From NCBI GenBank assembly GCA_023511455.1, contig JAIMBJ010000004.1:62001-126000 (forward strand): a stretch of 64,000 nt of DNA, read 5' to 3'. Positions 26,618 to 31,959 of this stretch are shown here, one piece after another. The stretch is from Bacillota bacterium (GTDB lineage Bacteria > Armatimonadota > HRBIN16). The notes under the pieces were generated by a model that was not told the DNA's origin, ran no database searches, and was given only the letters and a program-made list of their open reading frames with translations. Made by a program: the position numbers and the translations under genes. Position 1 is the first letter of the stretch. The number at the start of each line of letters is the position of its first letter.

Positions 26618-27001
26618 TCATTCTGCGCAGAAGCCGTTCGTCCGATGCCCGCGCACGGCGCGATACACCCGGCTCAGAAGGTCTGACAGACTCAACTGCT
26701 CACACACCGTTTCGTCGTCGCCTAACCGGGAGAGGAAGCGGAGCAGCGACCTTCTGAGGTCGTCGCGGTGTGCCGGTTCCTGCTCCGCCCCTACAACCTG
26801 CACGACCGGGACACGTATCCTCGGGAATCGCCCGCTTACGACCTCCTTGCACCGAAGGTTCAGCAAGCGGCCCTCTGAATCGTAGGCGACATATTCATTC
26901 TGCTGCACGTCGGTGGGCTCTACATACTGCTCAAGGTCCTGAACAGCATCGAAGACCTCGATGTCGCCTGCGCTATCTACCAAAACAAATGGTGGACGCA
27001 T
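26618..27001 (-). CDS. Candidate immunity protein of orphan Rhs tip 3
   Basis: 127 residues, acidic, with no membrane segment. It contains EPTDVQQNEYVAYDSEGRLL, a pattern ('...NEY..YDxEGRLL') I associate with small proteins found beside polymorphic toxins, but the family cannot be named with certainty. ATG 27001 lies 29 bases inside the end of the tip-3 frame, an overlap typical of toxin-immunity pairs. The ribosome-binding site is weak, consistent with coupled translation. The last gene of the Rhs array; it converges on the HExxH gene with a 66-base gap that holds nothing recognisable. Confidence 0.55.
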   Translation of the reverse strand: MRPPFVLVDSAGDIEVFDAVQDLEQYVEPTDVQQNEYVAYDSEGRLLNLRCKEVVSGRFPRIRVPVVQVVGAEQEPAHRDDLRRSLLRFLSRLGDDETVCEQLSLSDLLSRVYRAVRGHRTNGFCAE

Positions 27002-27293
27002 TGCTTAAAACCTGTGCCAAAACGACCTGGAGGTTAGTAAGCTCATCAAACCAGTCATCCCCACTCGGATCCACACAATTAACCGGCTCGTGCTCGCAAT
27101 ACAGATACGGATGCTCGCTCAGCACCGCATCCCGCGAGATACACCGCCCCACCCGCGGGTCGTGGTAGCGCGCCCCGACGTGTAGCAAGCCCGTATCGCT
27201 GTCAGCTACCGTATTACCCAGATGGGGGTTAGGGCTCCCTCTGCCCAAAGCGTCTGCTAGTCCAACACCAGTATCCAATGGTTGGTATCCCAA
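26973..27293 (-). pseudogene. Orphan Rhs C-terminal tip 3
   Basis: A displaced 3' end of an Rhs gene without the rest of the protein. Rhs-core similarity begins near 27230 (NTVADSDTGLLHVGARYHDP) and continues RVGRCISRDAVLSEHPYLY to the core boundary CEHEPVNCVDPSG. The tip after DPSG has only 28 residues (DDWFDELTNLQVVLAQVLSN, then eight more). The frame stays open back to 27293, overlapping the 2TM gene at 27229-27483, where it is not Rhs-like. No start codon with a good ribosome-binding site is seen, so it is probably silent unless recombined with a full rhs gene. Confidence 0.75.
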
Positions 27294-27483
27294 GCATTAT
27301 TGCCATACCAACCGGATCTTTGAAGAACGGGTTGTGATAGGATGGGTCGAACCTGCTGTAGATGAAACTTGCGACGATAATACTAACCATCCCTCCTAAC
27401 CATGTTCCTACGTCTCGCCAAAATCTATGGGTTTTGCTTTCCCTGCTTTGCACCTCCGCCACCTCCACCTCCGAGAGCAGCAC
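27229..27483 (-). CDS. Small two-helix membrane protein, candidate immunity (tip 2 cassette)
   Basis: Up to 84 residues; two hydrophobic segments (WLGGMVSIIVASFIYSRF and GMAIMLGIPTIGYWCW) separated by DPSYHNPFFKDPV. It is a paralog of the protein at 28785-29057: both share 'SYxNPFFxDxxGxAIxxGxPT'. GTG 27483 overlaps the tip-2 stop (TAGTG). A later GTG at 27453, eight bases after GGAGGTGGCGGAG, may be the true start. The position directly behind a tip suggests an immunity role; this is inferred from context. Confidence 0.6.
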   Translation of the reverse strand: MLLSEVEVAEVQSRESKTHRFWRDVGTWLGGMVSIIVASFIYSRFDPSYHNPFFKDPVGMAIMLGIPTIGYWCWTSRRFGQREP

Positions 27484-27920
27484 TACAAGCCCAATTCATC
27501 GAGCATGGCGTTGTACATCTTCAGCTTTTCCAGCTTTCCACGCAGACCGGTCCAGGCATCTTTCACGATATCGTAGAGTTGTTCGCCTCCCTCCCAGATC
27601 TGGTCTCCTATCCACACGCCTACCGCGCCGCCCAGTCCCATGCCAATCCATGCACCGGGTGGGCTAGCTACTACTCCGCCGATATCGCCCCCTATACCAG
27701 CACCAATACCACCCCAGAACCAGTCCCAGTAGTCCTTGAACGGTCTGTATCCACTCGGGTCCACGCTACTAACCGGCTCATGCTCGCACTACAGATACGG
27801 ATGCTCAGAAAGCACCGCGTCCCGGCTGATGAACCGCCCCACCTGCGGGTCATAGTAGCGTGCCCCGACGCGGAGCACACTCGCATCACCGTCATCGTCG
27901 TAGATCGCGAGTACTACACA
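27483..27920 (-). pseudogene. Orphan Rhs C-terminal tip 2, interrupted by a stop codon
   Basis: Rhs-core similarity starts near 27910 (IYDDDGDASVLRVGARYYDP, QVGRFISRDAVLSEHPYL). A TAG then stands where tip 3 has the Tyr of YLYCEHEPVN, and the frame continues CEHEPVSSVDPSG into the tip. The tip (86 residues after DPSG, to 27483) is rich in glycine and hydrophobic residues: GGIGAGIGGDIGGVVASPPG followed by AWIGMGLGGAVGVWIG, then an amphipathic Lys/Glu end. This resembles glycine-zipper pore-forming peptides. The nonsense change and the missing upstream core make it a silent remnant or reservoir. Confidence 0.75.
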
Positions 27921-28249
27921 TAATTCACACTCGCCGGCGTATCCTTCCGACCAGTTACATCACCCATCAAAGCGAGGCCTATCAGTTTGTGGAATAACAT
28001 CAATGTGCCTCGCTGCAACTTGGGGTACACCAGCGACACTACAAGCCAGGCGGTCAGGGTTTTAAAATAGTATTCACCGAATTCTTGTCCCAGCCATGTC
28101 CACATAGAAGGTCCACCTGTCGCCTGGTACCATACACTAAGAATCAATCCGCCCAGCAATGTTGTGAAAGCACTGAAAAGCACAGCTGCTAGTATCCAGC
28201 GCCACATCAAGAAGCCCACTGTCCGGATTGCCGCACGCATATCCCTCAT
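27914..28249 (-). CDS. Three-helix membrane protein, candidate immunity (tip 1 cassette)
   Basis: About 111 residues from ATG 28249 (ATG 28240 is also possible) near GGAGGGG. Three hydrophobic stretches: WILAAVLFSAFTTLLGGLIL, TLTAWLVVSLVY and LFHKLIGLALMG. No family recognised. It follows orphan tip 1 by 58 bases, and its stop is exactly where Rhs-core similarity of tip 2 resumes. Context alone suggests it protects against the tip-1 product. Base composition looks more A/T-rich than that of the flanking operons. Confidence 0.55.
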   Translation of the reverse strand: MRDMRAAIRTVGFLMWRWILAAVLFSAFTTLLGGLILSVWYQATGGPSMWTWLGQEFGEYYFKTLTAWLVVSLVYPKLQRGTLMLFHKLIGLALMGDVTGRKDTPASVNYV

Positions 28250-28307
28250 CCCCTCCAGATGCAATACTGCTGCACTGTGCTCTAAACACCGTGCCGCTGC
28301 GGTTATT

Positions 28308-28790
28308 TCATCTGACCCAAACGGGAGGATGGTCGGCGTAGTATGCTGCCATCTCACGCGCGGTGCGCTTTATCCAGTTCCACAATCTGCTGGCGTCGCC
28401 CTCCTCCCATGCAACTCCTACTGCAGCCAGTGCTCCAGCTACCGCGCCTGGTAGTCCTCCCAGCAGTACACCTCCACCACCGAGCACGATAAGGTTAACG
28501 ACAAATGTTTCCACCTTAAAATACCCACTCGGATCCACATGATTGACCGGGTCATCCTCGCAATACAGATACCGGTTCAACGACAATGGGCGATACAGGT
28601 TGCCCAGCCACTTGTCCGCGCTCGTCCACCTGCCTACCGCCGGCTCGTAGTAGCGCGCGCCGATATACAGCAGCCCCGCATCGCCATCATCGCGGTAGCC
28701 CCATGCGCCCGCAAAGCGATAGGGGTTGCCGCTGCTGCCCCACTGCGCCACCGGGTTGCCGAAGGCTTCGGTTGTGACAGTCGCTCAGTC
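28308..28790 (-). pseudogene. Orphan Rhs C-terminal tip 1
   Basis: An open Rhs 3' end without an N-terminus. It starts after an in-frame TGA at about 28792 with TVTTEAFGNPVAQWGSSGNP, continues with YRDDGDAGLLYIGARYYEP and SLNRYLYCEDDPVN up to HVDPSG. The 71-residue tip begins YFKVETFVVNLIVLGGGGVL and contains LGGLPGAVAGALAAVGVAW. The core part is nearly identical at DNA level to the same part of the main rhs gene (30352-30520). An 8-bp tandem repeat CAGTCGCT (28778-28785 and 28786-28793) sits exactly at the junction with the preceding gene, like a recombination scar. No usual start is present. Confidence 0.75.
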
Positions 28791-29057
28791 GCTCAAACGA
28801 CGTCGCCAGCGGGCAATTCGCCCCCAGAACGCTTCAGCATCTCTCAGATGTCCACCTTTGCGCCATCGCAACAAATAAAACATCATCGTCGGAAAGCCTA
28901 TCACGATTGCTATCCCATCCCAGTCGTCAAAGAATGGATTGTTATAGGATGGAAAGAAGTGCGCACCAATGAAGTTGCCAGCGATGATGCCAATCATGGC
29001 TGCTACCCATTCTATCAAACAATACGAGACGCTCTGTTTTTTCGACACGTGTATCAT
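28785..29057 (-). CDS. Small two-helix membrane protein, candidate immunity (main rhs cassette)
   Basis: 90 residues from ATG 29057, with GAGGAGGAC seven bases upstream. Two hydrophobic segments, LIEWVAAMIGIIAGNFIGAH and GIAIVIGFPTMMFYLL, flank PSYNNPFFDDWD; the C-terminus is strongly basic (RIARWRRRLSD). It is a paralog of the 27229-27483 protein. Its last codons lie in the 8-bp tandem repeat that marks the junction to orphan tip 1. No known family was recognised. Confidence 0.65.
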   Translation of the reverse strand: MIHVSKKQSVSYCLIEWVAAMIGIIAGNFIGAHFFPSYNNPFFDDWDGIAIVIGFPTMMFYLLRWRKGGHLRDAEAFWGRIARWRRRLSD

Positions 29058-30125: not shown

Positions 30126-31959
30126 TCACGGTCCCTTGTAATCAGGGTCACTCAGCCGTTCCATCATCCTAATCTGGTGTTCGTGGCTTCTACCATACAC
30201 TCCTCCCCAAGAGTGTCCCTCCTCCCGCTCTTTCGACCCCATCCACTCCGCAAACTCTCTTGCAGCCAGTATGGCAAGGATGCCAATAGTTACAGCGATG
30301 CTTATACCACGAAGCCATGGCCATAGCCTATTAGGCCGCCTGCCTGTGGGATCTACGCTGTTAACCGGGTCATCTTCGCAATACAGATACCGGTTGAGCG
30401 ACAGCGGGCGATAGATATCCCCCAACCACTTGTCCGCGCTCGTCCAGCGACCCACCGCCGGCTCATAGTAGCGCGCCCCGATATATAGCAGCCCCGCATC
30501 CCCATCGTCGCGGTAGCCCCAATCGCCGGCTAAGGTGTATGCCGTGCGGAAACCGGCGTCCAGCCGCTCCCCAAAGGCGGTGAAGTAACCGATGTAGGTC
30601 ACCCAACCGCCAGTTTCGTCGGTGTGTACCCGCGCCGAACCCAGACGGTCACCGCCACTCCACCACTGGTCGCCCCACAGGATGTTTACCGCGTTCACCA
30701 TGCCCCCCGCCCAGGTATACTTCCAGTCCATCATCAGATGGTTGTTTGGGTTGGGGTTATTCCACTGCTCGCGAAGCAGCGCGTCCCCCGCGAAGCGGTA
30801 AACAACCGAACGAGACGCACCCGAGTCGCTTACCCACCGGAAGAACCGGCGCCCGAGACCGTCATAGTTATAAAGGTGCGTGAAAATCATTTGACCTGCT
30901 ACTGAGCGAACAATTCGCTGCAGGCGGTCCTCCTCGTCGTAGCCAAAGGTGATGGTCACGCCATCCACCGTGCGCGACACCATGTTACCGTTGGCATCCC
31001 ACGCATAGGTGACCGAACCCGCACTCAGCAACCGGTTGTCATCATCGTAAGTGTAGTTCGTGACCACGCCATCCCGCACCTGTTGCACCCGGTTGCCTGC
31101 CGCGTCATACACCCAGTGCATCTCATACGCGACATACCCCTCCACTCGCCAACGGCAAAGCGCACACCCGTCAGTTTATTGCCGGTATACTGGAGTTGAA
31201 TCGCCCGCCCCGATGGGTCGCTGACTTGGGTTAGCAGCCCATTGGAATCGTAGGTAAGGGCAATGGCGTTGCCGTTAGTGTCTACGATGCGAGAAAGCCG
31301 ATAGTGGTTAATCACATTGGTGGGTTCGAACTCCAGCCGCACCTGCGACTTCAGGGTGAGCGCGTAGCTGTTTCCCGAAGCAGATAGTCGGTCGCGATAG
31401 CCATCACGCGGAACCCACTGTCCGCCCTGCAGGTCGAACAGCTGTATGGTTTGATGCCCCCACACCACGACAGCACGGTTCTGCTGGGGGTGGACGTTCA
31501 GATGCGTATCATAGGTGTGGCTCCACTTGGCGCCGATGGCAGGGTTGGTATACGCTGCCTTGCTATTGTGGTGCAGGCTAAACGATACCGGTAGCCCCCC
31601 ACGTGCTCGCCAGCTCACCAGAGGAATGTCCGTCTGCTTTGCTCGGGAGACGGCGTTGATGCCTGCCACACTTGCCTGCCACGAGTGCCCCGAACCGGAA
31701 CCCGCGGCGTCACCATCGTCCGGGGCAGGTGGAAGCACCTGTGACGCCATGACGGCGGTTGCCAGCGTATAGTTGGCATGGAGGTGCAGTTGAGTGGCAT
31801 AAGCGGAGACGGTGTTGGCGAGGATAATCCCCAGCGAGGCAGCTGCCGCGAGGATACTACTAAGCGCGGTTACCCCCCCGCCGCTTTTGTAAGCAGGAAT
31901 ACGACAGAAAGAGCCAATGCGAGGGGTTTGGTCAAGAAGCGTTTGCGAACACGGTTCAT
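30126..31959 (-). pseudogene. Rhs-repeat polymorphic toxin gene with two frame breaks
   Basis: The natural start is ATG 31959 behind AAGGAGGA, giving signal-like MNRVRKRFLTKPLALALSVV. The frame stops after a G7 run (31873-31879). One more G would join it to the long frame that continues ALSSILAAAASLGIILANTV. That frame holds the Rhs N-terminal region (GLPVSFSLHHNSKAAYTNPA, TNGNAIALTYDSNGLLTQVS) and breaks again at a G4 run (31137-31140). Adding one G gives a continuous EWRGYVAYEMHWVYDAAGNR. The last frame holds Rhs repeats, GLLYIGARYYEP, RYLYCEDDPVN and the boundary SVDPTG. The tip (70 residues) has one membrane segment (ISIAVTIGILAILAA). About 610 codons is short for an Rhs protein. Both breaks are single-base deficits in homopolymers, so sequencing error is possible. 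Confidence 0.8.

What the first reader, a model, noticed from the sequence alone, without database searches (positions are those of the whole stretch)
27483..28520. Glycine-rich hydrophobic Rhs tips that look membrane-active
Tip 2 contains GGIGAGIGGDIGGVVASPPG and more small-residue spacing; tip 1 contains LGGLPGAVAGALAAVGVAW; the main tip has a single helix ISIAVTIGILAILAA. Rhs tips are more often nucleases, deaminases or ADP-ribosyltransferases of 100-150 residues. Short glycine-zipper tips paired with multi-helix membrane partners suggest pore formation, as with bacteriocins. This is inference from composition.
Basis: inference. Interest (0 to 1): 0.6.

Follow-up and report, generated by a model that had tools for sequence, protein, structure and literature searches.

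The report
Silent Rhs membrane-toxin cassettes with immunity partners
The stretch holds spare, currently silent toxin tips for a large secreted bacterial protein; at least one looks like a small membrane-inserting "glycine zipper" warhead that always travels with the same membrane protein, probably its antidote, which would be a new example of a known kind of bacterial weapon.

Summary
The quoted peptides are all present, but tips 1 and 2 are displaced ("orphan") Rhs C-terminal cassettes, not tips of a working protein. A TAG stop cuts tip 2 from its core, tip 1 has only a short core fragment, and the window's main Rhs gene is frameshifted and internally deleted. The membrane reading is best supported for tip 2. 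Its family (WDWFWG, five glycines spaced by four, GD..W..GE) occurs in 6 of 291 genomes of the phylum, and in all seven loci the same family of small proteins with two hydrophobic segments follows it. The tip's C-terminal end changes between subfamilies while zipper and partner family persist. Sequence change is under purifying selection. AlphaFold2 gives low-confidence helical hairpins; no enzymatic family is hit. Best reading: small membrane-permeabilising Rhs toxins with two-helix membrane immunity proteins, working like CDI ionophores or Tse5/Tsi5 but without detectable homology to them, in a genome without a T6SS sheath gene. Tip 1 is weaker; the main tip is unsupported. Toxicity is untested. 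In passing: this Rhs class begins with a conserved signal-peptide leader ending in a variable poly-G tract that joins two reading frames, suggesting a phase-variable start.

The parts
27486..27764 (-). Tip 2: orphan Rhs tip, glycine-zipper hairpin (DPSG..WDWFWG, G every 4 residues, GD..W..GE, then a variable end)
27765..27923 (-). Remnant Rhs core of tip 2, with in-frame TAG at 27789-27791 that cuts it from the tip
27229..27453 (-). Tip-2 partner, candidate immunity protein with two hydrophobic segments. The open frame extends to a GTG at 27483 that overlaps the tip-2 stop (TAGTG); a GTG at 27453 is the likelier start because it aligns with the ATG of the G006 copy
28308..28538 (-). Tip 1: orphan Rhs tip, hydrophobic glycine-rich hairpin plus conserved EEG..W.W.K..HPP.W end
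28539..28751 (-). Remnant Rhs core of tip 1 (first frame-2 stop before it at about 28785)
27914..28249 (-). Tip-1 neighbour, small hydrophobic protein (open frame to GTG 28357; likelier ATG at 28249), candidate immunity protein
28785..29057 (-). Second member of the tip-2 partner family, without a tip-2 next to it (orphan immunity candidate)
26973..27293 (-). Third orphan Rhs core with a 28-residue tip (DDWFDELTNLQVVLAQVLSNASTICFGR) that also ends a 1008-residue Rhs open frame in species G007
26618..27001 (-). Soluble ORF overlapping the end of the third tip, possible partner
30126..31145 (-). 3' part of the main Rhs gene: last YD repeats, core and main tip (tip 30126-30353, one hydrophobic helix)
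31025..31871 (-). 5' part of the main Rhs gene (DUF6531, first repeat) in another frame; frameshift and deletion junction near 31,140
31873..31959 (-). Conserved signal-peptide leader of the Rhs gene (MNRVRKRFLTKPLALALSVVFLLTKAAGG), ending in a tract of 7 G (31873-31879) after which the Rhs frame continues out of phase

Best explanation
The region is an array of silent Rhs tip/immunity cassettes. Tip 2, and probably tip 1, are small all-helical membrane-active toxin domains. Loaded onto a full-length, signal-peptide-bearing Rhs protein by recombination in the shared core (inferred), the glycine-rich hairpin would insert into a target cell's cytoplasmic membrane, pack through its glycine faces and let ions leak (inferred). 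The small membrane protein encoded directly downstream would block insertion or assembly in the producer (inferred). Shown here: cassette structure, recurrence, co-occurrence of tip 2 with one partner family, conserved glycine spacing, past purifying selection, no recognisable enzymatic domain. Not shown: membrane insertion, toxicity, protection. As assembled, neither tip can be made as part of a full-length Rhs protein.
For: Tip-2 and partner profiles hit the same 6 of 291 genomes (plus marginal extras), adjacent in all 7 loci, one of them in another family of the phylum. Glycines 37/41/45/49/53 are invariant. The tip's last 30 residues differ between subfamilies while zipper and partner family persist. 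dN/dS: tip 2 0.22-0.23, tip 1 0.09, partners 0.32-0.54. Helix-only models. No enzyme family. Partners of 70-90 residues with two hydrophobic segments resemble the 72-100-residue two-helix CdiI proteins of CDI ionophores (PMC11630599) and two-TM Tsi5 (PMC9637101). Orphan tip/immunity arrays with functional products are known (PMC3150448).
Against: No toxicity data. Window tip 2 has low hydropathy (1.10), an Asp in the zipper and non-significant GxxxG spacing on its own. Membrane neighbours are common beside non-TM tips in this genome, and the strongest zipper tip has a soluble neighbour. No tip-2 copy was found on a full-length Rhs gene. The tip-1/neighbour link rests on one adjacency. Models have low confidence (pLDDT 71-73).
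Confidence: 0.6

Rival explanations
1. The glycine-rich segment is a pre-toxin or entry region that permeabilises the target membrane to carry a C-terminal domain across, as in Tde1; the short tips here carry a small C-terminal effector or have lost it.
For: Tde1's N-terminal zipper serves translocation of a DNase domain (PMC10240207). In this genome C14:6350 combines 15 GxxxG with a further C-terminal stretch and a soluble neighbour. Tip 2 and tip 1 keep conserved non-zipper ends within their subfamilies.
Against: Only about 30 residues follow the hairpin in tip 2, they differ between subfamilies, and the partner family stays with the hairpin.
Confidence: 0.2
2. The modules are decaying gene fragments without present function; hydrophobic open frames survive by chance or recent origin.
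For: Stop in the tip-2 core, frameshifted and deleted main gene, truncated or interrupted copies in G001, G005:C2 and G006.
Against: Tip and partner frames are mostly open and were under purifying selection; glycine positions are invariant between families of the phylum.
Confidence: 0.13
3. Tip and downstream membrane protein are not toxin and antidote but act together, for example as a surface-anchoring pair for the Rhs protein.
For: Neither protein has a known family, both look membrane-associated, and some other tips of this class carry a lipobox-like motif.
Against: Exchangeable tips in orphan arrays, each with its own kind of neighbour, are the signature of toxin/immunity modules (PMC3150448).
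Confidence: 0.07

Closest known systems
CDI ionophore toxins with CdiI immunity proteins (E. coli CdiA-CT groups, PMC11630599)
   Same: Exchangeable C-terminal membrane-depolarising domain, putative glycine zipper, immunity proteins of 72-100 residues forming two-helix membrane hairpins
   Different: CdiA/CdiB delivery, five-helix ionophore plus a separate entry domain; the tips here are shorter and no homology was detected
Tse5/Tsi5 of Pseudomonas aeruginosa (PMC9637101, PMC10684867)
   Same: Rhs protein with a membrane-pore-forming C-terminal tip and an immunity protein with two predicted transmembrane regions
   Different: T6SS delivery, DPXGL-(18)-DPXGL autoprotease motif and a 149-residue tip; here no T6SS sheath gene, a signal-peptide-like leader and tips of 71-88 residues
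Glycine-zipper LXG toxins TelE and EsxX (PMC10434224, PMC12744356)
   Same: Extended GxxxG motif near the C terminus, membrane damage or depolarisation, dedicated immunity proteins
   Different: T7SS LXG carriers in Gram-positive bacteria; TelE immunity is a DUF5085 protein; no detectable homology
CdzC/CdzD with CdzI of Caulobacter (PMC5380434)
   Same: Glycine-zipper proteins of 84-86 residues with a small membrane immunity protein
   Different: Free two-peptide bacteriocins exported by a type I system, not Rhs tips
Tde1 N-terminal glycine zipper (PMC10240207)
   Same: Repeated GxxxG segment that permeabilises the membrane
   Different: There the zipper serves entry of a DNase domain; no such domain follows in tip 2

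Membership tests
Orphan Rhs-CT/immunity cassette (PMC3150448) | Rhs core end directly upstream of the tip | tested here: met
   TIGR03696 matches 44-64 bits over the cut-off at the orphan cores
Orphan Rhs-CT/immunity cassette (PMC3150448) | No full gene upstream; fragment of core only | tested here: met
   Core fragments of 50-75 residues, stop codons upstream
Orphan Rhs-CT/immunity cassette (PMC3150448) | A cognate ORF follows each tip and recurs with it | tested here: met
   Tip 2: 7 of 7 loci. Tip 1: only one adjacency
Orphan Rhs-CT/immunity cassette (PMC3150448) | Tip toxic and neutralised by the ORF | not testable with these tools
   needs experiment
Glycine-zipper pore-forming toxins (TelE, EsxX, Cdz, CDI ionophores) | Repeated GxxxG beyond composition | tested here: met
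   Family: relatives p<=0.0006, invariant G37/41/45/49/53; window copy alone p=0.10
Glycine-zipper pore-forming toxins (TelE, EsxX, Cdz, CDI ionophores) | Sequence or fold homology to a characterised member | tested here: not met
   Pfam glycine-zipper hit below cut-off (14.5 of 25 bits), no PDB sequence or fold match
Glycine-zipper pore-forming toxins (TelE, EsxX, Cdz, CDI ionophores) | Membrane depolarisation or permeabilisation | not testable with these tools
   needs experiment
T6SS Rhs pore-forming effector (Tse5 type) | T6SS in the genome | tested here: not met
   No VipB sheath match in a 99% complete genome; control E. coli positive
T6SS Rhs pore-forming effector (Tse5 type) | DPXGL-(18)-DPXGL autoprotease motif before the tip | tested here: not met
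   This class has SRDAVLSE or SADKWLG then a single VDP[ST]G, by reading the translations
T6SS Rhs pore-forming effector (Tse5 type) | PAAR-type N-terminus | tested here: not met
   N-terminus is a signal-peptide-like leader followed by DUF6531; no PAAR hit

The most novel reading that the evidence does not exclude
A minimal glycine-zipper hairpin of about 50 residues is an exchangeable Rhs warhead with a dedicated two-helix immunity family, carried by Sec-exported Rhs proteins whose expression is switched by a hypermutable poly-G tract inside the signal peptide.
Probability: 0.3. Interest if true: 0.65.

Novelty: new member of a known kind. Interest (0 to 1): 0.45.

Why it matters
If true it adds a very small membrane-acting warhead and its antidote family to the Rhs repertoire, in a genome without a T6SS sheath gene. 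It is a compact pair for testing whether a glycine hairpin alone can depolarise cells and how a two-helix membrane protein blocks it. The poly-G leader, if it is a switch, would be a way to turn such a toxin on and off that I did not find described for Rhs proteins.

Tried and rejected
(1) Known families for tips and partners: Pfam, NCBIfam, PADLOC, PDB sequences and Foldseek gave only sub-threshold hits. PHROGs was not run. (2) Sequence link between the tip-1 partner and the neighbour of its C19 relative: not significant (255 and 39 of 1000 shuffles reach the score). (3) Remnant of partner 1 behind tip 1 in G003: no convincing match. (4) Plasmid search with a tip-2 relative: none; phages were not searched. 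The genome-contig scan found one contig, JANWYZ010000060.1, which corresponds to G003:C425 already in hand. (5) Partner-family matches in G266 and G270 (E 1e-4 to 9e-4) rejected: about 37 residues inside longer open frames (351-359 aa). (6) Common origin of tip 2 and the hairpin tip of the long C19 Rhs frame: the profile comparison aligns only the DPSG end, 27 columns, so left open. (7) T6SS delivery: rejected for this genome.

Full report
What is there. On the minus strand of 26.6-32.0 kb lies one main Rhs gene followed by three orphan Rhs core/tip modules and their neighbours. The genome (3.85 Mb, 99% complete) has 35 Rhs core-end matches, mostly in such arrays; two other species of the genus have 36 and 51. 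The nearest named record is a contig of 'bacterium isolate SKYG83'; the tools did not name the phylum.

State of the genes. The main gene is broken: N-terminal DUF6531 plus a first repeat in one frame, the last repeats, core and main tip in another, joined at about 31,140 where most YD repeats are missing (compare the 1022- and 1094-residue open frames elsewhere). Tip 2 is separated from its core by an in-frame TAG (27789-27791). The core fragments are repeats: the tip-1 core is 84% identical to the main gene's core, the tip-2 core 81% to the third orphan core. Recombination could in principle load tips, as proposed for orphan CDI and Rhs modules (PMC3150448). None of the seven tip-2 copies found sits on a full-length Rhs gene.

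Tip 2 and its partner. Profiles of the tip and of the partner, run over 291 genomes of the phylum, return the same six genomes, plus marginal extras (G266 and G270 for the partner, G038 for the tip). In all seven loci the partner follows the tip within about 200 bases. One locus (G013) is in another family of the phylum and has the full pattern: VDPTG..WWDWFWG, a zipper, then a small hydrophobic ORF. The same tip occurs behind different core types (RDAVLSEHPYL and SADKWLG), so the cassette moves between cores. Within the family the glycines at 37/41/45/49/53 and the GD..W..GE end of the hairpin are invariant (W57 is missing in one interrupted copy). The last 30 residues fall into unrelated types while the partner family remains, so what the partner recognises is most likely the hairpin. 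The window's own copy is not significant for GxxxG spacing alone. G038 has a similar WDYFWGG glycine tip followed by a different hydrophobic ORF.

Tip 1 and the main tip. Tip-1 relatives exist in G003 (75%) and on contig C19 of the same genome (45%), with a conserved EEG...W.W.K...R.M..Y..HPP.W end. Its neighbour has one homologue, in G003, away from the tip. This is suggestive only. For the main tip no relatives were sought and I make no claim.

Selection and structure. Nei-Gojobori dN/dS: tip 2 0.23 and 0.22, tip 1 0.09, partners 0.32-0.54. These frames were maintained as proteins in the past, which says nothing about expression today. AlphaFold2 (two sequences for tip 2, one for tip 1) predicts helices only, mean pLDDT 71-73, without significant PDB match. 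Only sequences of the window and of the search for related loci record were folded.

Calibration inside the genome. A table of the tips shows modules with nuclease-type tips (Tox-REase-9, 30.8 bits; DUF4258, 24.3 bits, just under its cut-off) and mostly soluble neighbours, but also many multi-TM neighbours beside tips without hydrophobic helices. One tip (C14:6350) has the strongest zipper of all, yet a further C-terminal stretch and a soluble neighbour. Composition plus a membrane neighbour therefore does not prove pore formation. For tip 2 the argument rests on strict co-occurrence and on which part of the tip stays constant.

Mechanism. Best supported: membrane-inserting zipper toxin plus two-helix immunity protein, working like CDI ionophores (PMC11630599), Tse5/Tsi5 (PMC9637101), TelE and EsxX (PMC10434224, PMC12744356) and CdzCD/CdzI (PMC5380434). 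Membership in any of these sequence families is not claimed: no homology was detected, and T6SS and the DPXGL autoprotease motif are absent. The main rival is an entry segment as in Tde1 (PMC10240207).

A side finding on expression. Rhs genes of this class in the genus begin with a conserved leader, MNRVRKRF[VL]TKPLA..LS.VFLLT..., with a purine-rich ribosome-binding-site-like stretch upstream. It runs into a poly-G tract of 5, 6, 6, 6, 7, 7, 9, 10 and 18 G in nine copies from five genomes. After the tract the Rhs protein continues in a different frame. Substitutions favour third codon positions on both sides, each in its own frame (80/38/152 before, 207/113/303 after). The frames join only if n = 2 mod 3 (n counted without the G of a preceding GCG/GCA; the C19 copy, GCGAGGGGG, needs one more G), and none of the nine assemblies is in phase. 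This looks like a phase-variable or slippage-dependent start. Short-read assembly of G runs is a caveat, and relatedness of the copies means nine is not nine independent observations. Paper searches for phase-variable Rhs toxins found nothing direct.

Noticed in passing
window 31873-31959 (minus), and L086-L089, L091-L094: Conserved Rhs signal-peptide leader ending in a poly-G tract of variable length (5-18) that joins two reading frames; all nine assembled copies are out of phase. Possible phase-variable or slippage-dependent start of an Rhs toxin gene.
   Followed up: partly
window 26973-27071; L115 (G007:C293): A 28-residue tip (DDWFDELTNLQVVLAQVLSNASTICFGR) of an orphan core here also ends a 1008-residue Rhs open frame in another species: an unusually short conserved tip.
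   Followed up: no
L032 9342-9039, L116 main Rhs gene, L117 near 4079: Some tips begin with a hydrophobic stretch and a lipobox-like motif (LLGGC, LPGC) followed by Pro-rich or Asp-rich repeats: possible lipoprotein-like tips.
   Followed up: no
window 28785-29057: A second member of the tip-2 partner family without any tip 2 beside it: an orphan immunity-like gene.
   Followed up: partly
L033 (C14:1-14000): Two pairs of identical Rhs modules about 6.5 kb apart (tips at 1358/7837 and 3645/10124): segmental duplication or an assembly repeat.
   Followed up: no
L058, L060, L031: Another recurring tip family (..IAEE[VI]YI.YV....RMR.ML..W....Y[RK]VRP) is followed by a TM plus ankyrin-repeat ORF in several genomes.
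   Followed up: no
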